64,000 nucleotides of DNA from Bernardetia sp. ABR2-2B (lineage in GTDB: Bacteria; Bacteroidota; Bacteroidia; Cytophagales; Bernardetiaceae): NCBI RefSeq assembly GCF_037126435.1, contig NZ_CP147020.1, positions 4,167,001-4,231,000 on the forward strand, in the 5' to 3' direction. Positions within the stretch are counted from its first letter, which is position 1. Each line of letters starts with the position of its first letter. A program made the position numbers and the translations under genes. Shown in pieces: positions 45,810 to 57,620 of the stretch. Under the pieces are notes generated by a model. The model ran no database searches. It saw nothing but the letters and a program-made list of their open reading frames with translations, and was not told the origin of the DNA.

Positions 45810-47204
45810 ATGCAAAACACAGTTTCTATTTCCCCTAATTCTCAATCTATTACCAGATTCAAAACAGCAAAATTAGTGATGGTTACGGCTCATAACAACA
45901 ATAAATATTATGAAATGAAACAGCTTTCTGATGATATTTTTTCGGTTTCGTATGGAAGAGTAGGGCAAAGAGCAGCTATCAATGAATATTCTATGTATCA
46001 ATGGGAAAGCAAATACAGAGAAAAAGTACGGAAAGGATATAAAGATGTAACTCATTTGTTTTTGGAAGAGCTAGACAAAAAGTCTTCAAAGAACAATTCT
46101 ATCAATTCTAACTATCAAAATTCTTTAGCTTCTTGGTCAGCTATCAAAAATGGAGATGTACGTGAGCTTTTTCGCCATCTTACACGCTATGCACAGCAAT
46201 CTATTTCTTATAACTATGAAGTTCCTGCTGCTGATGTTACGATGGCACAAGTAGAAGAAGCTCAAAGTATTTTAGATAATCTGACTAAAAAAGTGAATTT
46301 CAAATCCAATAATATAAATAAAAAAGAAGTAGAGAATTTTGATACAATAGAGTTTAATGCGCTTTTATTAGAACTCTACGGCATTATTCCACGCAAAATG
46401 GAAACTGTTCAGAATTATCTTTTGGAATATACAGCAGGAAAAACAGTTTCTAAACAGATTTTGAAAAGGGCAAGGAAAATATTGACAAACGAACAAGAAA
46501 CGTTAGATGTAATGCGTGGCGAAGTAGAATTGAGATTGCAACAAGCAAAAAAAGCATACTCACGTAAAGACACACAGTCGTCTGTTTCTAATACTACGCT
46601 TTTAGATGCACTAGGAATTGAAGTAGATATTTTAGATGCTAAAAAGGTAAAAGATGCCATTCAAATAAAATCTATCAAAAAAATGATGCAAAATGAAGTA
46701 GGCAAATTTGTAAATGCCTATGCAGTAAAAGACATCGCACAAGAACAGATTTTTAATAAAAATCTAAAAGAAAGCAAGTACAGAACAACAGAATTATTAT
46801 GGCATGGAAGCCGAAATGAAAATTGGCTTTCTATCTTAAAAACAGGGTTGATTTTGCGCCCCACCAATGCACTTATTACTGGAAAAATGTTTGGCTATGG
46901 ACTTTATTTTGCCGACCAATGCCGAAAATCTTTGAATTATACTTCGTTGGCAGGTTCATTTTGGACAGGAGGAAATGACAAAAAAGCATTTTTGGCAATC
47001 TATGAAGTTCATACAGGCAGACAACTCAAAATCGAACATTATGAAGATTGGTGTGCTGGTCTGACTTACCAAAATCTTAAAAAACAAAATTCAGAAGCCG
47101 ATTCTCTCTTTGCAAAAGGAGGCATTGACCTTTTGAATAATGAATTTATAATCTACAAAGAAAATCAATGTACGATTCGATATTTGGTCGAAGTGCATTA
47201 TTGA
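45810..47204 (+). CDS. Bacterial PARP: WGR domain, helical region and PARP catalytic domain
   Basis: 464 residues. WGR domain ~17-88 (KYYEMKQLSDDIFSVSYGRVG, with YGRVG in place of WGRVG, then the Lys-rich KYREKVRKGYKDV helix). Residues ~105-250 are helical and take the place of the PARP regulatory domain (VEEAQSILDNLTKKV; FNALLLELYGIIPRK). PARP catalytic domain ~295-464: LLWHGSR with H332, GKMFGYGLYFAD with Y366, and LLNNEFIIY with E445, so the H-Y-E triad of true poly(ADP-ribose) polymerases is intact. The order matches eukaryotic PARP2/3. It should use NAD+ to modify proteins or DNA ends; the target is unknown. PARPs are sporadic in bacteria, so transfer is likely. The gene may be co-transcribed with the WGR-like gene downstream. 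Confidence 0.92.
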   Translation: MQNTVSISPNSQSITRFKTAKLVMVTAHNNNKYYEMKQLSDDIFSVSYGRVGQRAAINEYSMYQWESKYREKVRKGYKDVTHLFLEELDKKSSKNNSINSNYQNSLASWSAIKNGDVRELFRHLTRYAQQSISYNYEVPAADVTMAQVEEAQSILDNLTKKVNFKSNNINKKEVENFDTIEFNALLLELYGIIPRKMETVQNYLLEYTAGKTVSKQILKRARKILTNEQETLDVMRGEVELRLQQAKKAYSRKDTQSSVSNTTLLDALGIEVDILDAKKVKDAIQIKSIKKMMQNEVGKFVNAYAVKDIAQEQIFNKNLKESKYRTTELLWHGSRNENWLSILKTGLILRPTNALITGKMFGYGLYFADQCRKSLNYTSLAGSFWTGGNDKKAFLAIYEVHTGRQLKIEHYEDWCAGLTYQNLKKQNSEADSLFAKGGIDLLNNEFIIYKENQCTIRYLVEVHY

Positions 47205-50392: not shown

Positions 50393-51472
50393 ATGATAAA
50401 CCTAGAAACACTAAAAAAAGAAAATCTAATCCTCCTAGAAGCACTTGCAGGAAGCAAAGCCTACGGAACAGATTTACCCACTTCGGACACAGATATAAAA
50501 GGGATTTTTATTCTACCCAAAGAAAAATTTTATGCTTTAGAGTATGTTCCACAAGTGAGCGATGAGAAAAACGATATTGTTTTTTATGAAATAAAGCGTT
50601 TTATAGAACTTTTATCAAAAAATAATCCGTCTGCGATTGAGATTTTTCATACTGCAAAAGAAGATATTTTTCACAAAAATCCGATTCTTGACCTTATAAA
50701 GTCGGAAGATATTTTATCAAAAATGTGTAGAGATACCTTTGCAGGTTATGCCCTTACACAAATCAAAAAAGCAAAAGGATTAAAGAAGAAAATTTTTAAT
50801 CCAATGCCGAAAGAACGAAAAAAGGTATTAGATTTTTGTTATATTTTAGATAATCAAGCAAACGGAAAGGGGAGTATTTCTCTTCAAAAATGGCTCAAAA
50901 CAAACGATTACAAACAAGAGAATTGTGGACTTTCATCAATAAATCATATCAAAAATACATATTTACTTTTTTATCATAATCAAAAAACGGATTTTTATTA
51001 TAAAGGAATTTTGAAAAACATCGATTCGAACGAAGTTAGTTTGAGTAGTATTCCGAAAGGAGAAAAACCGATTGCTTATTTATATTTCAATAAAGAAGGT
51101 TATGCAGCCCATTGCAAAGAATACAAACAATATTGGGAGTGGGTAGAAAAGCGAAACGATACACGCTATGAAAATACACTTGAACACGGAAAAAATTACG
51201 ATGCAAAAAATATGATGCACACCTTTCGTCTTTTAGATATGGCGATTGAGATTTTAGAACAAAAAAAAGTGTTTGTAAAACGCCCTAATAGAGAAGAGTT
51301 ATTAAAAATACGAAGTGGTTTTTTTACGTATGAAGAGTTACTAAAAAAAGCCGATAAAAAAATAGAAATTCTAGAGAAAGCCTATCAAAATTCTACTTTA
51401 CCAGAGTATCCAAATGTCGAAAATTTAGAAAAAACTTTGATTGAAATCAGAAGCAAATTTTATTCAAAGTAA
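50393..51472 (+). CDS. Nucleotidyltransferase-fold protein (COG3541-like)
   Basis: 359 residues. Pol-beta-type nucleotidyltransferase core at the N-terminus: GSKAYGT (20-26) followed by SDTD (31-34), giving the GS...DxD active site. Long helical C-terminus, with residues such as KRNDTRYENTLEHGKNYDAKNMMHTFRLLD (~245-280, shown in part) typical of the COG3541 group. Substrate unknown: it could add a nucleotide to RNA, protein or a small molecule. It precedes the triple-TIR gene by 90 bp on the same strand, so they may be one transcript. The MITE copy B is directly upstream, and the gene is unlike its core-gene neighbours. Confidence 0.8.
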   Translation: MINLETLKKENLILLEALAGSKAYGTDLPTSDTDIKGIFILPKEKFYALEYVPQVSDEKNDIVFYEIKRFIELLSKNNPSAIEIFHTAKEDIFHKNPILDLIKSEDILSKMCRDTFAGYALTQIKKAKGLKKKIFNPMPKERKKVLDFCYILDNQANGKGSISLQKWLKTNDYKQENCGLSSINHIKNTYLLFYHNQKTDFYYKGILKNIDSNEVSLSSIPKGEKPIAYLYFNKEGYAAHCKEYKQYWEWVEKRNDTRYENTLEHGKNYDAKNMMHTFRLLDMAIEILEQKKVFVKRPNREELLKIRSGFFTYEELLKKADKKIEILEKAYQNSTLPEYPNVENLEKTLIEIRSKFYSK

Positions 51473-51562: not shown

Positions 51563-54500
51563 ATGTCCAACTTCAATAACGTTTTTATTTCTTACGGTAG
51601 AGCCGAATCAAAAGCCTTTGCTACAAAATTACATGATGATTTATGTGAACGAGGATATAATGTTTGGTTTGACCAAAATGACATTCCATTAGGTGTAGAT
51701 TTTCAGCATCAAATTGACGAAGGAATAGAAAAAGCAGATACTTTTATTTTTATTATTGCACCTCATGCTGTAAAATCAGTCTATTGTAGAAAGGAAATTG
51801 ATTTGGCTGTAAAGAGAGGAAAACGCATTGTTCCTATTCTTCAAATTGAACCAACAACGAAAGAAGTTTGGGATAAGCTCCACCCAGCTATCGGAAAGAT
51901 AAATTGGGTCTATATGCGCCAAGAGTGGCAAAAAGATATTCCACAAGAAAACTACAAGCAACTTGATGACTATGAACCTGCCTTTGAAGGACTTTGGAGT
52001 CTTTTAGAAAGTCATAAAGAATACGTAAGAACACACACAGAAATTTTAGCTAAAGCTCTCAACTGGGAAAGTCATAATAAAGATTCTCATTTGCTTTTAG
52101 TAGGAAAGGAAAGACAAGAAGCTGAAAAGTGGCTTTTGAAAGAATTTGCAACTGAGCAATCGCCTTGTTTGCCCTCTGATTTGCATACTGATTTTTTATG
52201 TGAATCAAGAAAAAATGCTGAAAATCTTCTCACAGACTGTTTTATTTCCTACTCCTCACAAGATAAAGAAGAGCGAGAAGCTGTTCGTTTGGCTTTAGCA
52301 AGGCATTTAATTACAACTTGGACACACAACCGAGATATTGTAAAAGGAGAGGAATTTGATAAAGCTATAGAAAGAGGAATTGAAGGAGCTGATAATTTTC
52401 TGTTTTTTATTACGAAAGATTCTATTATTTCAGAGTATTGTCTTTTTGAGTTGGAATATGCTAAAAAGCTAAATAAACGAATTATTCCATTGCTGATTGA
52501 AGAAGTTTCTGCAAAAGAATTCCCAACACAAATCAAGAATCTGCAGTATATCAATTTTACAGATAATGTAATTACTGAAGTTACTTCCAAAAACGAAAAG
52601 ACTGATTTTGAGAAAGACATCGATACTTTAGTAGAAGAAATAAACCGAAATAGAGAACATTACAAAAAGCACAAAGTATTTCTTACTAATGCTTTGAAGT
52701 GGGAAAGGCAAAATAATAATGCCTCTGTTTTATTACGTGGACATAAATTAGATGAAGCAAAAGTCTGGCTCAAACGAGGACAAAAATTAAGCAAACATCA
52801 GCCACTGCCTTTGCACGAAAATTTCATTTTAGAAAGTGAAGCTAAAAGTGGAAATTTAGAAACAGAGATTTTTGTTTCCTATTCTCGTACAGATAGTGAT
52901 TTTGCTAGAAAGCTAAATGAAGAATTACAATTCAATGGCAAAACAACGTGGTTTGACCAAGAAAGTATTGCCTCAGGTGCAGATTTTCAACAAGAAATTT
53001 ATAGAGGAATAGAGGGAGCAACAAACTTTCTGTTTGTTATTTCTCCTGATGCTATTGAGTCGCCTTACTGTGCTGATGAAGTAGAATATGCTCAAAAACT
53101 AGGAAAACGCTTTATTACTGTTTTGCATAGAGAAACTGACCCTTCTACATTACCTCCTGCTTTAGCTTCTGTTCAATGGATTGATTTTGTAGGTAAAGAT
53201 TTCAATAAGCAATTTGGAGAAGTAATCCGAACCTTAGATACAGATAGAGAGTATGTCAGAATGCATAATGTTTGGCAGAAAGAGGCTCTACAATGGCAAC
53301 AGAGTAACAAAAACAAAGATTATTTACTTAGAGGAAGTAGTTTTGCATTGGCAAATGAATGGCTAGAGTCTGCTGATAAAGAAAAAAAACAACCTCAACC
53401 GACAGATTTACAAAGAGAATATTTAGATGAAAGTCAAGCTGCTATTTTTGCTTTGGAGCGTAAAGAAAAAAATACAATCAAACGCCTTAGGGGACTTTTG
53501 GCTGTGGCTGTTGTAGCACTTATTGCATTTCTTGGTATAAGTTTTTATGTCTATTACCTCTATAATACTTCTAATCGCCTTCGTGTGTATGCTGAAAAAT
53601 TGAATGATAGAGCTAACCTAAATCGAATAAAAGCAGAAGAAGAAGCTGAAAGAGCAAAAGAAGCCTTAAAAGTTGCTGATGCAGCAAAACAAGAAACAAG
53701 CAAAGCATTAGTTCAATTACAAGAAAAAGAAAAAAATCTTCAAAAAGCATTATCAGATGCAATCAATTCTAAAAAATTTGCAGAAGCAAAACGGATTGAA
53801 GCTAAACTGGCTCAAAACCAAGCTGAACAAGAAAAAGAAAAAGCTGTCATTTCTCAACAATTAGCTGATACAGAATCCAAATCAAATGAAAAAATATCAA
53901 CAGCATTACAACTTACTGAAAAAGACCCAACGTACGCCTTATTTTTAGCAAAAGAAGCGTACCAAGAAAATCCAAAACCAATTACCAAAGATGTAGTATT
54001 TTCTATCCATCGGAATCATTCCTTTTACGAAACAAAATACAAAGGGCATACTGCCTCAATCAATGAGATAGCTATTTCTCCTAATGGAACAATACTGACA
54101 GGAAGTTCGGATAGAACAGCACATCTAATAAATAGTAGTGGCAAACGTATTAGTATAGCAGGAGGGGCAGATAGAGTTGGCTCAGCAGATTCAGGTTTTT
54201 CAAGCGATGGAGAACTTACTCGCAGCATAGCAGGGCATAAGGGATATATTGGTACAGTAGCTTTTTCAAGTGATGGAGAACTTATTGCTTTGGGAGGGGA
54301 AAATAAGATAACAGTCTGGACAAAGGAAGGAGAATTTGTAACAACATTACAAAACGATGACGAGACTTCGATGAGTAAAGTTGTATTTATGCCAGATAAT
54401 AAACACCTTATTACAGGTGATTATAACTCGTATATAAGAAAATGGAATATCGAAACACAAGAAGTTGTTGCAGAAAATGACTTATCAGAAGAAGAAATTA

Positions 54501-56431
54501 CAGACATACAAATTACTTCTGATGGAAAAAAGATAATTGTTTCGACGATAGAAAGTGCTAATATTCTTGATACTAATTTAGAGATACAAGATTATTTCTT
54601 TTCAGATATGGAACATGTAGAAGCAATTGATATTTCTCCAAATGATAGCTTATTAGTAACAGGAAGTTGGGGAAAGAGAAGAATAATATTATGGAAATTA
54701 TCAAATACAAGTGAACCTATTTTTATAGCTCCTACTGATTATGTCAAGAGTATTAGCTTTTCCCCTGATGGAAATTATATTTTAGCTGGATTATTAAATG
54801 GAAATGTTCAAAAATGGAATCTAACAGGCAATCTAGTTCATACTTTTAAAGGACATCAAGACCGTGTGAGTGGAATTGGTTTCATAGATGATAAGATGGT
54901 TACTTCTTCTCACGATGCTACTGTCTTGGTATGGCAAAATGAAGGGAGTTTACTTCAAGAAAAGAAAATCCATGAAAAAATAATTACTGCTATTTCTCAA
55001 AATAAAATAAGTAATAATTTACTTACTTCCTCTTATGACAAATATTGGAAGCTGCACAATGAAAATGGAGAATTAATCAGAGAGAAACAGTACGATTCGG
55101 AAGTCATGTCATCAATATTTTCTAAAGATGGGACAAAAGCTGTTATAGGTTTATGGAAAAAGGAAGTAGAGCTTTGGAATGGAGATTTAACACAAAAAGA
55201 AGCAACTATAACTTTATCTCACTACGTGAAAAGAGTAGCCATTTCTGATGATAATAAATATATCGCTATTGGAATAAATAATGATAGAGGACGCTATAAA
55301 GGAGAGGTTTTGATTTATGATATAAGTGATATGGCTACACCTATTTTAAAAATAAGTACACCAGCAGAAGTATCTGCAATTACTTTCTATCCAGAGTTAT
55401 CAGATTATGTAGGGGTAGCAGATGAAAAAGGAACGTTACAAATATGGCAGTTATCAAATAAAAGCATGTATAGTAATTTTAGTTCTTTATATCCTCATCA
55501 TATATATCTTCTAAAGTTTTCGAAGGAGAATGAACGAATTCTTGTAGGAGGACGAAATGATAATGCTATTTTGAGTGATTGGAGTGGAAAAGTAAAAGCT
55601 AACTTACAAGGACACACTTCATTTGTATTAGGAGGAGGTTTTTCGACTAATCAAAATCAGATAATTACATCTAGTACCGATCGTTCTATCAAAATTTGGG
55701 ATTTGGAAGGTAATCTCATCAAAACTCTTACAGGACATCAAGATAACGTAAGAGGAGCTATATTTTCAAATGATAACAATAAAATATATTCTGTTGATGA
55801 AAGTGGAAATATGAAAATTTGGAATGCTGTAATTTCTCCTCTTGAGAACAATGATTTATACTCTCCCGATACACCTGATTTGCTCAGTGTTGGAGTAGAA
55901 CCAAGTAAAGAAGACTTAGAACAAGCAACTCTGAATGAAATATTAGGTTTAATAGACCAATACAATGAGAAGCTAGATGAAGCTGGGTATGAAGTAGAGA
56001 AATATCCAATTACGTTAAAAATAATTGAGTTATTTGAGGTCGCTGTTACTAAAAATGGCTTTTCTGAGGATGACCAATTTGACTACGAAGTAGCTTACTC
56101 AGAAGCAATCAACAATGGTTTGTATATAGATAAGAAAGGCGAAATACTACAGATTGCAAAAACAGGAATAGAAAAAGGATTTACAGAAGAGCTATTTACA
56201 CAAGGTGCTTTTGCTGCTTTCCTTGTCAATAATCAGTTTGAAGAAGCCGAAAAAATCTATCAAAAATACTACAAAACTTCAGATTGGTTAGATATGCTAG
56301 AAATGGATATAGGTATTCTTTCTATAAGTGAAGTAATAACCGAAGAGCAGGAAGCGTTTTTTGAGAAACTAATGAAGGAGAGTGGAAAGAAAGTAGAGAA
56401 GAAAAGAAAAAGTAGAAAGCCAAAGCAGTAA
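51563..56431 (+). CDS. Triple TIR domain, transmembrane and WD40 repeat protein
   Basis: 1622 residues. Three TIR domains at ~5-118 (VFISYGRAESKAFA; SVYCRKEIDLA), ~225-335 (CFISYSSQDKEERE; SEYCLFELEYA) and ~434-545 (IFVSYSRTDSDFAR; SPYCADEVEYA). Each keeps the Cys-xx-Glu position (E78, E296, E506) used as the catalytic Glu in TIR NADases. Each is followed by a related ~60-residue helical linker (ALxW...LLxG...A..WL; ~153-215, 365-427, 562-624), so a ~210-residue unit has been triplicated. Then one membrane helix (LLAVAVVALIAFLGISFYVY, ~645-664), a coiled coil (~675-770), a run of WD40 repeats (~825-1405) and a helical C-terminus ending KKRKSRKPKQ. Probably a sensor coupled to NAD+ cleavage; the trigger is unknown. 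Between a nucleotidyltransferase and a WYL regulator on the same strand. Confidence 0.9.
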   Translation: MSNFNNVFISYGRAESKAFATKLHDDLCERGYNVWFDQNDIPLGVDFQHQIDEGIEKADTFIFIIAPHAVKSVYCRKEIDLAVKRGKRIVPILQIEPTTKEVWDKLHPAIGKINWVYMRQEWQKDIPQENYKQLDDYEPAFEGLWSLLESHKEYVRTHTEILAKALNWESHNKDSHLLLVGKERQEAEKWLLKEFATEQSPCLPSDLHTDFLCESRKNAENLLTDCFISYSSQDKEEREAVRLALARHLITTWTHNRDIVKGEEFDKAIERGIEGADNFLFFITKDSIISEYCLFELEYAKKLNKRIIPLLIEEVSAKEFPTQIKNLQYINFTDNVITEVTSKNEKTDFEKDIDTLVEEINRNREHYKKHKVFLTNALKWERQNNNASVLLRGHKLDEAKVWLKRGQKLSKHQPLPLHENFILESEAKSGNLETEIFVSYSRTDSDFARKLNEELQFNGKTTWFDQESIASGADFQQEIYRGIEGATNFLFVISPDAIESPYCADEVEYAQKLGKRFITVLHRETDPSTLPPALASVQWIDFVGKDFNKQFGEVIRTLDTDREYVRMHNVWQKEALQWQQSNKNKDYLLRGSSFALANEWLESADKEKKQPQPTDLQREYLDESQAAIFALERKEKNTIKRLRGLLAVAVVALIAFLGISFYVYYLYNTSNRLRVYAEKLNDRANLNRIKAEEEAERAKEALKVADAAKQETSKALVQLQEKEKNLQKALSDAINSKKFAEAKRIEAKLAQNQAEQEKEKAVISQQLADTESKSNEKISTALQLTEKDPTYALFLAKEAYQENPKPITKDVVFSIHRNHSFYETKYKGHTASINEIAISPNGTILTGSSDRTAHLINSSGKRISIAGGADRVGSADSGFSSDGELTRSIAGHKGYIGTVAFSSDGELIALGGENKITVWTKEGEFVTTLQNDDETSMSKVVFMPDNKHLITGDYNSYIRKWNIETQEVVAENDLSEEEITDIQITSDGKKIIVSTIESANILDTNLEIQDYFFSDMEHVEAIDISPNDSLLVTGSWGKRRIILWKLSNTSEPIFIAPTDYVKSISFSPDGNYILAGLLNGNVQKWNLTGNLVHTFKGHQDRVSGIGFIDDKMVTSSHDATVLVWQNEGSLLQEKKIHEKIITAISQNKISNNLLTSSYDKYWKLHNENGELIREKQYDSEVMSSIFSKDGTKAVIGLWKKEVELWNGDLTQKEATITLSHYVKRVAISDDNKYIAIGINNDRGRYKGEVLIYDISDMATPILKISTPAEVSAITFYPELSDYVGVADEKGTLQIWQLSNKSMYSNFSSLYPHHIYLLKFSKENERILVGGRNDNAILSDWSGKVKANLQGHTSFVLGGGFSTNQNQIITSSTDRSIKIWDLEGNLIKTLTGHQDNVRGAIFSNDNNKIYSVDESGNMKIWNAVISPLENNDLYSPDTPDLLSVGVEPSKEDLEQATLNEILGLIDQYNEKLDEAGYEVEKYPITLKIIELFEVAVTKNGFSEDDQFDYEVAYSEAINNGLYIDKKGEILQIAKTGIEKGFTEELFTQGAFAAFLVNNQFEEAEKIYQKYYKTSDWLDMLEMDIGILSISEVITEEQEAFFEKLMKESGKKVEKKRKSRKPKQ

Positions 56432-56615
56432 CATACTTTAAAGTAAAAAGACGATATTTTTTTGGCAAAATCCATTTAAAATGCGTTTTTTGTTAGAATT
56501 ATGATTTAATACAAAAGTTACTTCATTTTTCATGAATCGTCAGATTAAAATTGTAATTAGCGACACTGATTATTTCATAATTCGTAATCCATAATGTTTA
56601 ATTCGTAATTGATAT

Positions 56616-57620
56616 ATGGCAGCTACCAAACTCGCTTTTTTTCGCTATTTGCTTATTGACCAAATGTTACGCAGCAAATTCAAACCTTTTCCTACCAAAG
56701 ATGAATTATTGGAAGCCTGTAGAGAGCGTTTTGGGGTTTCTTCGGCTTCAACTATCGAAAAAGATTTAGCTGCTATGCGTGATGAGTTTGATGCGCCAAT
56801 TCAGTACAGCAAAAAAATGAGAGGATATTCTTACTCTGATACAAAATACAAATTCCTTTCTGTTAATCTTTCTGATGATGAACAACTTGCAATGGCTTTT
56901 GTAGAGTCTCTTTTGGGAGAGTTTAGAGAGCTTCCTATTTTTAATGAGTTTTCAGGTGCAGTAGATAAAGTCTTGGACGGAATGGAAATTGCCAAAACTT
57001 CTGAAATCCAAAAAAATGTTCAGCGAATTATTCAAGTCGAACAATCGATTTATAAAGGAAAAGGAACACACCAACTCAAAGATTTAATCTATCATATTTC
57101 AGAACAAAATGTAATCAAAATATTCTATCAAAAACACAACGAGCTACACACGAAACCTTATAATATCCACCCTTATTTATTAAAAGAATACCGAAATATG
57201 TGGTATTTGATTGGTTGGGTAAGAAAATATAACGAAGTCAGAACCTTCGGACTAGATAGAATAATGGATATAGAACCTTCTGATGAGAGCCTTTTCATTA
57301 CTCCAGACCAAGCCAAATTTAATCCAGAAGAATTTTATCATTACTGCATTGGCGTTTCGGCATTAAATCAAAAGCCAGAAGATATAGTTTTGAGTTTTGA
57401 TCCCTTTCAAGGAAAATATATCAAATCACAACCCTTGCATCACACACAAGAAGTTTTGGTAGAAGATGATAATGAATACAGAATCCGTTTGCATTTGATT
57501 GTAAATTACGAACTCAAAATGTTGATTTTGGGTTATGGTTCGTCTGTTCGTGTGATTAGCCCTTCGCCTCTTGAAAAACAAATTCGTGCAGAGCTTCAAA
57601 ATACATTACAGCAGTATTGA
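56616..57620 (+). CDS. WYL-domain transcriptional regulator
   Basis: 334 residues. N-terminal winged HTH (~12-75: KDELLEACRERFGVSSASTI), a helical linker, then a WYL domain ~165-235 (IKIFYQKHNELHTKPYNIHP; MWYLIGWVRKYNEVRTFGLD) and a C-terminal cap. WYL regulators bind nucleic acids or nucleotides and often control defence genes. It lies 184 bp after the TIR-WD40 gene on the same strand; whether it regulates that gene is inference. Confidence 0.9.
   Translation: MAATKLAFFRYLLIDQMLRSKFKPFPTKDELLEACRERFGVSSASTIEKDLAAMRDEFDAPIQYSKKMRGYSYSDTKYKFLSVNLSDDEQLAMAFVESLLGEFRELPIFNEFSGAVDKVLDGMEIAKTSEIQKNVQRIIQVEQSIYKGKGTHQLKDLIYHISEQNVIKIFYQKHNELHTKPYNIHPYLLKEYRNMWYLIGWVRKYNEVRTFGLDRIMDIEPSDESLFITPDQAKFNPEEFYHYCIGVSALNQKPEDIVLSFDPFQGKYIKSQPLHHTQEVLVEDDNEYRIRLHLIVNYELKMLILGYGSSVRVISPSPLEKQIRAELQNTLQQY

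What the first reader, a model, noticed from the sequence alone, without database searches (positions are those of the whole stretch)
51563..56431. One protein with three TIR domains, a membrane helix and a WD40 sensor
The TIR plus helical-linker unit (~210 residues) is present three times in a row, each with a Glu at the NADase catalytic position, followed by one membrane helix, a coiled coil and a WD40 propeller region. TIR proteins usually carry one TIR. Triplication could raise local TIR concentration for filament assembly, or allow divided roles. Known: TIR NADases act in anti-phage and cell-death systems. Inferred: this is a membrane-anchored sensor.
Basis: partly seen in the sequence, partly recalled or inferred. 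Interest (0 to 1): 0.8.

Follow-up and report, generated by a model that had tools for sequence, protein, structure and literature searches.

The report
Three-TIR membrane receptor in bacteria
The gene encodes a membrane protein with three non-equivalent TIR domains inside the cell and, most likely, an exchangeable sensor outside it, and it belongs to a conserved but apparently unnamed family found in some Bacteroidota and in filamentous cyanobacteria.

Summary
In detail: one 1,622-aa ORF holds three TIR+helical-linker units, one membrane helix, a coiled coil and a WD40 region. It is not a one-off. The same genome has four such proteins with different C-termini, and relatives occur in Bacteroidota and cyanobacteria (57 of 79 loci kept). 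Of 105 distinct multi-unit proteins found with a three-unit query, 104 have exactly three units. The positions are old, separate lineages: first, second and third TIRs group by position (104/104 each). They are not equal. TIR1 keeps the Arg, Asp and Glu of known active sites in all of 109 distinct proteins, TIR3 in 92. TIR2 keeps the Glu (104/109) but all three in only 1/109. So 'three equal NADases for avidity' is unlikely; divided roles are likely. Charge bias (94 of 101) places the TIRs inside and the C-terminal part outside. The window copy is a single-gene insertion between two core genes. Best reading: a transmembrane receptor whose pre-linked TIRs form composite NAD+-cleaving sites on activation. 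Activity, topology and trigger are unproven. No library profile scanned names the architecture, nor did the paper searches made. New variant of a known kind.

The parts
51563..56431 (+). whole ORF, 1,622 aa: TIR-linker x3, membrane helix, coiled coil, WD40, C-terminal helices
51575..51946 (+). TIR1 (about residues 5-128); keeps S10, Y11, R13, D37, S72, E78
   Evidence: Pfam; AF2; best solved relative SARM1; these residues in 54 of 54 relatives below 80% identity
51794..51796 (+). codon of Glu78, aligned with SARM1 E642
   Evidence: 109 of 109 distinct proteins
51971..52222 (+). helical linker 1 (residues 137-220)
   Evidence: AF2 helices; present after each TIR
52229..52600 (+). TIR2 (about residues 223-346); keeps Glu296 but not the active-site Arg and Asp (here S232, H255)
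52448..52450 (+). codon of Glu296
   Evidence: Glu in 104 of 109 distinct proteins
52604..52855 (+). helical linker 2 (residues 348-431)
52859..53230 (+). TIR3 (about residues 433-556); keeps S439, Y440, R442, D465, S500, E506
53078..53080 (+). codon of Glu506
   Evidence: Glu in 103 of 109 distinct proteins
53201..53452 (+). helical linker 3 (residues 547-630), whose last helix runs on into the membrane helix
   Evidence: AF2 helix 615-699 unbroken
53492..53575 (+). membrane helix (about residues 644-671), basic on its N-terminal side
53576..53920 (+). coiled-coil region (residues 672-786)
   Evidence: AF2 helices, (the second of low confidence)
54059..55825 (+). WD40 beta-propeller region (residues 833-1421)
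   Evidence: Pfam; WD-40 protein 2ymu phmmer E 1.2e-85; AF2 strands, low confidence
55907..56383 (+). C-terminal helical region (residues 1449-1607), no Pfam name among the matches shown
   Evidence: AF2 (block means mostly 70-87, lower at its ends)
50393..51472 (+). flank, not part of the system: RlaP-type nucleotidyltransferase gene, in 7 of 7 genomes of the genus
56616..57620 (+). flank, not part of the system: WYL/WCX regulator gene, in 7 of 7 genomes of the genus

Best explanation
The protein is a single-gene transmembrane receptor. The N-terminal TIR1-TIR2-TIR3 array lies in the cytoplasm. One membrane helix, continuous with the last linker helix, crosses the inner membrane, and the coiled coil, WD40 propellers and C-terminal helices lie outside as the sensor. 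When the outer part binds or clusters, the already linked TIRs stack into the two-TIR composite sites that known TIR enzymes need. TIR1, and in most members TIR3, supplies the cis catalytic set. TIR2 has lost its own site and acts as a spacer or half-site donor, since it keeps the aromatic that in Cat1 comes from the neighbouring TIR. The output is NAD+ cleavage, either depletion or a signalling product. Shown here by computation: domains, folds, residue conservation, ancient position-specific TIRs, charge bias, single-gene insertion. Inferred: topology, composite sites, NADase output, the trigger.
For: Fold: three TIRs, pLDDT 92, best Z 18.1-18.8. Catalysis: SARM1 F565-R570, D594 and E642 map to F8-R13, D37 and E78. 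SARM1 R569C, D594E and E642A are NADase-dead (PMC9381744, passages). Cat1 S7, H8, N9, N10, D33, S68, E74 line one half of its site and K121, Y122 from the stacked TIR the other half (PMC12162218, section 7); the alignment puts these on the matching TIR2 columns. Arg+Asp+Glu all present in TIR1 109/109, TIR2 1/109, TIR3 92/109 distinct proteins and 11/12 single-TIR relatives. Aromatic at the Cat1 Y122 column, carried to TIR1 and TIR3 by the unit alignment: 53, 50 and 49 of 54. Position-specific lineages: 104/104 each, and 112 of 112 rows each (109 distinct) with added proteins. Topology: membrane helix after TIR3 in 101 of 103; more Lys/Arg on the TIR side in 94 of 101 (mean 5.5 against 3.0 per 15 residues; composition predicts 1.8). 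CHASE2 in the C-terminus of one cyanobacterial triple and of one five-unit protein, the two tested. Exchangeable sensors: the three other paralogues are 45-61% identical to this one over the N-terminal part and have unlike C-termini; WD40 in 53 of 82 C-termini scanned. Stand-alone: empty-site comparison.
Against: No activity, topology or phenotype was measured. The Cys argument is weak: 0 of 935 C-terminal residues here, but the window average is only 0.53% (P about 0.007); the cyanobacterial L067 is little depleted and L104 not at all. WD40 repeats outside the cytoplasm are unusual (recalled). TIR2 keeps its Glu in 104 of 109, and D33A in Cat1 left partial activity in vitro, so TIR2 may not be dead. 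In Cat1 the Arg position is Asn, so that residue is not universal. TIR3 has Gln or Ala for Glu in 6 of 109. The monomer model says nothing about how TIRs from different chains stack. Three of the four paralogues are in 6 or 7 of 7 genomes of the genus, less patchy than usual for a phage-defence gene.
Confidence: 0.55

Rival explanations
1. Avidity model of the first reader: all three TIRs are equal NADases, and triplication only raises local concentration for filament assembly.
For: All three have TIR folds and a Glu at the catalytic column.
Against: The three positions are separate lineages without exchange in 104 and 109 distinct proteins. TIR2 lost Arg and Asp (both kept with Glu in 1 of 109) and is less conserved (mean column identity 49% against 66% and 65% over 19 sequences each). 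In the one five-unit protein examined the order is T1-T2-T1-T2-T3, so T1-T2 was added and T3 was not.
Confidence: 0.12
2. Scaffold model: none of the TIRs is an enzyme in the cell; the array nucleates assembly with other TIR proteins, as TLR and MyD88 TIRs do.
For: TIR2's best structural matches are receptor and adaptor TIRs (Hydra TRR-2 Z 18.6, MyD88 16.9), though its best sequence match is the enzyme Cat1. The genome has three further TIR proteins.
Against: TIR1 keeps the tested SARM1/Cat1 active-site columns (S10, Y11, R13, D37, S72, E78) in 54 of 54 proteins below 80% identity, which a pure scaffold would not need.
Confidence: 0.13
3. Signal-maker model: the array makes an ADP-ribose-type messenger read by a separate SLOG protein that opens a SLATT channel, as a Thoeris-like relay.
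For: In cyanobacteria, LSDAT (SLOG) genes sit near these genes: 10 of 12 LSDAT genes found in 16 genomes lie within 10 kb of a multi-TIR gene and 11 of 12 within 20 kb (places compared by hand). DUF4231/SLATT and patatin genes are close in some loci.
Against: The four Bacteroidota genomes checked, the window's own included, and three of the twelve cyanobacterial ones (G420, G422, G423) hold triples but no LSDAT_prok; in G424 the LSDAT gene is on another contig than its triple. The window genome's two DUF4231 genes lie far from its triples, and the window gene has no evident partner. Many of the cyanobacterial loci are orthologous, so the counts are not independent, and the genomes were chosen because they hold a triple.
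Confidence: 0.2

Closest known systems
SARM1 TIR (animal NAD+ hydrolase)
   Same: closest solved relative of TIR1 by profile (E 6e-12) and by structure (Z 18.1); active-site columns shared
   Different: one TIR per chain, ARM/SAM regulation, octamer, no triple array or outer sensor (recalled)
Cat1 (CRISPR-associated TIR, filament-forming NADase; PMC12162218, section 7 and passages)
   Same: closest solved relative by profile of TIR2 (2.2e-15) and TIR3 (1.8e-11); active site shared between two stacked TIRs
   Different: one TIR plus CARF, activated by cA4; no membrane helix (recalled)
SPARTA TIR-APAZ
   Same: best structural match of TIR3 (8i87, Z 18.8)
   Different: one TIR, works with a short Argonaute; no membrane helix (recalled)
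Single-TIR-linker-TM proteins of the same bacteria (unnamed; in loci L143-L153)
   Same: same linker and, by eye in the printed sequences, a membrane helix and often WD40-like repeats
   Different: one TIR only; all 12 lie outside the three lineages in the FastTree; one of them joined TIR1 in an unfinished IQ-TREE run
Thoeris ThsB/ThcB
   Same: TIR profile similarity
   Different: far below the NCBIfam cut-off for ThcB4 (99 against 220 bits); no ThsA-type partner next to the gene
DUF4062/TEP1 TIR-like NADases (PMC13174449, passages)
   Same: TIR-like NADase and WD40 repeats in one chain (TEP1)
   Different: NACHT ATPase between them and one TIR-like domain; no membrane helix (recalled)
Tandem-TIR Toll-2 receptors of molluscs (PMC4929906, abstract and outline)
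   Same: membrane receptor with more than one intracellular TIR
   Different: two TIRs at the C-terminus, animal Toll; here three at the N-terminus with the sensor at the C-terminus

Membership tests
TIR domain superfamily (Pfam TIR_2) | profile match above curated cut-off in each copy | tested here: met
   one search lists all three window copies over the cut-off
TIR domain superfamily (Pfam TIR_2) | TIR fold | tested here: met
   AF2; best Z 18.1, 18.6, 18.8
TIR NADases (SARM1/Cat1 type) | catalytic Glu at the SARM1 E642 / Cat1 E74 column | tested here: met
   but a receptor TIR also has it (TLR6)
TIR NADases (SARM1/Cat1 type) | active-site Asp (SARM1 D594, Cat1 D33) in TIR1 and TIR3 | tested here: met
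   109/109 and 109/109 distinct proteins
TIR NADases (SARM1/Cat1 type) | active-site Asp in TIR2 | tested here: not met
   His255 here; Asp in 10 of 109
TIR NADases (SARM1/Cat1 type) | cleavage of NAD+ | not testable with these tools
   needs an assay
Thoeris (ThsB/ThcB) | NCBIfam ThcB4 model above cut-off | tested here: not met
   99.1 against 220 bits
Thoeris (ThsB/ThcB) | SLOG partner (ThsA) in the same locus | tested here: not met
   the adjacent genes are RlaP and WYL, present in all 7 genomes of the genus; ORFs further off were read by eye only, apart from 45810-47204 (PARP)
Toll/IL-1 receptors | outer LRR or Ig ectodomain, one TM, C-terminal TIR (recalled) | tested here: not met
   three N-terminal TIRs and a C-terminal WD40 part; works like one perhaps, not a member
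TIR-CARF, TIR-SAVED, TIR-STING effectors | cyclic-nucleotide sensor domain fused to TIR | tested here: not met
   no such domain among the 25 of 42 Pfam matches shown; the PADLOC SAVED_TIR model matches in its TIR part
vWA-MoxR ternary conflict systems (Kaur et al. 2020, PMC7159879, passages) | linked vWA and MoxR genes | tested here: inconclusive
   neither adjacent gene is one; other neighbours were not profiled for it

The most novel reading that the evidence does not exclude
An inverted bacterial counterpart of a Toll receptor: a single-gene receptor family with exchangeable outer sensors and an obligatory, ordered heterotypic TIR array. TIR1 and TIR3 catalyse, and TIR2 is a conserved catalytically dead half-site donor, so that the minimal NAD+-cleaving TIR assembly is built into one chain and needs no filament from separate proteins.
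Probability: 0.33. Interest if true: 0.86.

Novelty: new variant of a known kind. Interest (0 to 1): 0.7.

Why it matters
Known TIR enzymes become active when TIRs from separate chains stack, so it is hard to assign a residue to one place in the assembly. A natural chain with three ordered, individually mutable TIRs lets one ask which TIR gives the catalytic half and which the neighbour's half. It also points to a bacterial receptor family, with several copies in some genomes, that may sense something outside the cell and respond by spending NAD+.

Tried and rejected
WYL regulator and RlaP as partners: rejected. Both are in 7 of 7 genomes of the genus. Five of the seven lack the window-type gene (judged by frame length); in four of these (G001, G002, G003, G005) the two genes lie next to each other, about 160-220 bp apart, and in the fifth (G004) they are on different contigs.

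Mobile-element cargo: none of the 68 pattern matches in viral contigs encoded a relative; three plasmid records, two with 80% or more of the query covered; no transposase noticed beside the window gene (ORF list read by eye). No evidence of a carrier.

Ranking artefact as the reason for 'exactly three': the list (best 80 of 210) favours full-length matches. In 13 genomes searched whole with a single-unit model (counted by hand; chosen because they hold a triple) I count, by full-length unit matches, 31 frames with three units, 2 with five, 2 with two, 13 with one, none with four; TIR-only matches were not counted and the list was cut at its weak end. In the 79 genomes (own included), 11 hold near-full-length matches, and the other matches over 500 bases all lie in the 2,656-aa protein of G073.

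Common in the phylum: rejected. 1 of 345 Bacteroidota genomes, the window's own, at E<=1e-40 (at most three candidates per genome were scored).

Weak or failed: AF2 of the C-terminal part (two sequences, pLDDT 63) was not searched further. The IQ-TREE bootstrap run was cut by time and gave no support values; in that unfinished tree one single-TIR protein joined TIR1. A fast IQ-TREE run on the same 119 units gave SH-aLRT 83 (TIR1), 36 (TIR2), 98 (TIR3), with the two T2-like units of the five-unit protein outside the TIR2 group and ten of the 12 single-TIR units together at 100. FastTree supports were 0.59, 0.99, 0.89 and 0.78, 0.995, 0.40. pdb_via used only chains that Foldseek ranked; the helical linkers were not tested apart.

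Rows dropped and repeats: exact duplicates over 400 residues (106 to 105 proteins). Three of the eight triples added repeat proteins already present, so its 112 rows are 109 distinct proteins; at 95% identity there are 105, with Arg+Asp+Glu in 105, 1 and 89 (TIR1, TIR2, TIR3). Near relatives remain in all these counts; the 54-protein set below 80% identity was the check. L124 was left out of the per-position counts. The third unit of one protein (second ORF of L066) is cut by the contig end.

Full report
What is there. The ORF at 51563-56431 (+) encodes 1,622 aa. Pfam gives three TIR_2 domains and a WD40 region, with one membrane helix at about 644-671. AF2 of residues 1-700 is confident (pLDDT 92.2, pTM 0.82) and shows TIR, about 85 residues of helices, TIR, helices, TIR, helices, then one unbroken helix 615-699 that includes the membrane segment. 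Residues 833-1421 are a run of strands as in WD40 propellers and 1449-1607 are helical, but that model is poor.

A family in the same genome. The genome has 15 TIR_2 matches: twelve lie in four proteins with three TIRs each, three in single-TIR proteins. The other three triples are 61, 57 and 45% identical to this one over the N-terminal part and then differ: WD40 (this one), a 226-aa tail without a Pfam match (P0002), a long tail with about ten hydrophobic segments, the anchor included (P0003), a tail that looks coiled-coil (P0004). Judged by frame length, the P0002 type is in 7 of 7 genomes of the genus, P0003 and P0004 types in 6 of 7, the window type in 2 of 7. The genus is probably Bernardetia: a contig of G006 has the same length (112,350) as a record titled Bernardetia sp. 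MAG-102.

Distribution. In Bacteroidota at large it is rare: 1 of 345 genomes. A scan of one genome per species found 210 coding matches, of which the best 80 (79 distinct loci) were kept. By record title I count among the 79: 57 cyanobacterial, 16 Bacteroidota and 6 with alphaproteobacterial names; these six are metagenome bins that may be misassigned. Many hosts are filamentous (Symploca, Moorena, Anabaena, Calothrix; recalled). None was found in viral contigs, and three plasmid records hold a match.

Exactly three, in fixed order. With a TIR+linker profile from the four paralogues I found 105 distinct multi-unit proteins in the fetched loci; 104 have three units. The exception is a 2,656-aa protein (L124) with nine TIR-bearing units, the first very divergent, and one linker fragment. 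In a tree of all units the first, second and third units form three clean groups, 104 of 104 each, and 112 of 112 rows each (109 distinct proteins) after adding more triples, 12 single-TIR relatives, a two-unit and a five-unit protein. In that tree the single-TIR relatives lie outside the three groups. The five-unit protein reads T1-T2-T1-T2-T3, and L124 has one full T3, at the end next to the membrane. Window TIR3 is 57% identical to a cyanobacterial TIR3 but 37% to its own TIR1 and TIR2. So the triple is older than its spread over the two phyla, and the positions are not interchangeable. Support values differ between tree runs, some are low, and they are given under Tried and rejected.

Are they NADases? 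Profiles of TIR1, TIR2 and TIR3 find SARM1, Cat1 and Cat1 first among solved structures. The TIR1 alignment puts F8-I-S-Y-G-R13, D37 and E78 on SARM1 F565-R570, D594 and E642. In SARM1, R569C, D594E and E642A abolish NADase activity, while R570Q loses basal activity in vitro but keeps some in the presence of NMN (PMC9381744, passages). In Cat1, S7-N10, D33, S68 and E74 of one TIR and K121, Y122 of the stacked TIR line the site; all six alanine mutants tested (N10, D33, S68, E74, K121, Y122) failed to arrest growth, D33A only partly lost activity in vitro, and Y122A was inactive (PMC12162218, section 7). Arg, Asp and Glu are all present in TIR1 109/109, TIR2 1/109, TIR3 92/109 distinct proteins; Glu alone in 109, 104 and 103; all three in 11 of 12 single-TIR relatives. 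In 54 proteins below 80% identity TIR1 is invariant at S10, Y11, R13, D37, S72 and E78; TIR2 has the Asp in 6 of 54. The aromatic at the Cat1 Y122 column (carried to TIR1 and TIR3 by the unit alignment) is kept in 53, 50 and 49 of 54. TIR2 is also the least conserved (49% mean column identity against 66 and 65, 19 sequences each), and its best structural matches are receptor and adaptor TIRs. The Glu by itself proves little, because TLR6 has it too.

Topology. A membrane helix follows TIR3 in 101 of 103 proteins. Lys+Arg in the 15 residues before it exceed those after it in 94 of 101, equal in 5, fewer in 2 (means 5.5 and 3.0); the N-terminal composition predicts 1.8. By the positive-inside rule the TIRs are inside and the C-terminal part outside. 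This agrees with CHASE2 (an extracellular sensor, recalled) in a ~1,050-aa cyanobacterial member and in the five-unit protein. Cys depletion (0 of 935 here; lower than the N-terminal part in 89 of 101) agrees weakly. WD40 is the domain found most often in the C-termini scanned (53 of 82, each cut at 700 residues).

Neighbourhood. The window gene is a clean single-gene insertion between RlaP and WYL genes that are in all seven genomes of the genus. Four genomes have the two genes about 160-220 bp apart, and a conserved AT-rich element stays on the WYL side. In cyanobacteria the gene often lies near LSDAT (SLOG) genes, DUF4231/SLATT genes (one of the two profiled fused to a lysozyme-like domain), patatin, or CHAT-TPR, ShlB and DUF928 genes. 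Matches to one seed protein each within the fetched flanks, many of them cut by contig ends: LSDAT in 9 of 79 loci, SLATT in 9, patatin in 2, CHAT-TPR and ShlB in 10 each; DUF928 in 18 of 79. In 16 genomes, 10 of 12 LSDAT genes are within 10 kb of a multi-TIR gene (compared by hand). That suggests a messenger relay there. Seven of the 16 genomes, the window's included, have no LSDAT_prok.

Known or new. Pfam, PADLOC and NCBIfam give TIR and WD40 matches but no model for the architecture; the NCBIfam TIR models score far below their cut-offs. Searches of the open PMC library for three, tandem, multiple or triple TIR domains, for TIR with WD40 in cyanobacteria, and for TIR with SLOG/SLATT found no description of it in the listings, nor did the passages seen in four papers (PMC7159879, PMC8195603, PMC13142454, PMC13174449). 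Most listed papers were not opened, and subscription papers were not searched. I file it as a new variant of the TIR effector/receptor kind.

Verdict. Confirmed observation, partly supported interpretation. Most likely a transmembrane receptor with a built-in TIR assembly and unequal TIRs (confidence 0.55). The evidence against, above all the lack of any activity or topology measurement and the kept Glu in TIR2, is stated with the best explanation.

Noticed in passing
45810-47204 (+): A PARP-type ORF (PARP catalytic domain E 4.8e-24, WGR domain), another probable NAD+ consumer, lies about 4 kb upstream of the TIR gene.
   Followed up: partly
L124:3859-11826 (+): A 2,656-aa protein of a same-order genome (G073) with nine TIR-bearing units and one linker fragment; only the last unit is of the TIR3 type.
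   Followed up: partly
L154:986-5533 (-): A five-TIR protein (T1-T2-T1-T2-T3) with a CHASE2 C-terminus in the genome behind L107 (record title Adonisia turfae); it lies near SLATT and LSDAT genes.
   Followed up: partly
L014:5505-8092 (+): Elsewhere in the window's genome a single-TIR gene sits beside a nucleotidyltransferase (weak SMODS match) and a Cap15 cyclic-dinucleotide receptor gene, which looks like a CBASS operon.
   Followed up: partly
L012:6308-9055 (-): A Roc-COR protein with leucine-rich repeats and a C-terminal TIR in the same genome.
   Followed up: no
L116:2509-3921, L066:10453-12057: DUF4231/SLATT membrane proteins near triple-TIR genes; one has a phage-lysozyme-like C-terminal domain (E 3.5e-21), the other a sub-threshold chitinase match.
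   Followed up: no
L076:126-4329 and similar loci: ShlB-type secretion, CHAT-TPR and DUF928 genes recur beside triple-TIR genes in cyanobacteria, often beside members of about 1,050 aa.
   Followed up: partly
56432-56615: A conserved intergenic element, TTTTTTTGGCAAA followed by AAAATGCGTTTTTTGTTAGAA with small variations, lies upstream of the WYL gene in the six genomes of the genus compared; perhaps its promoter.
   Followed up: no
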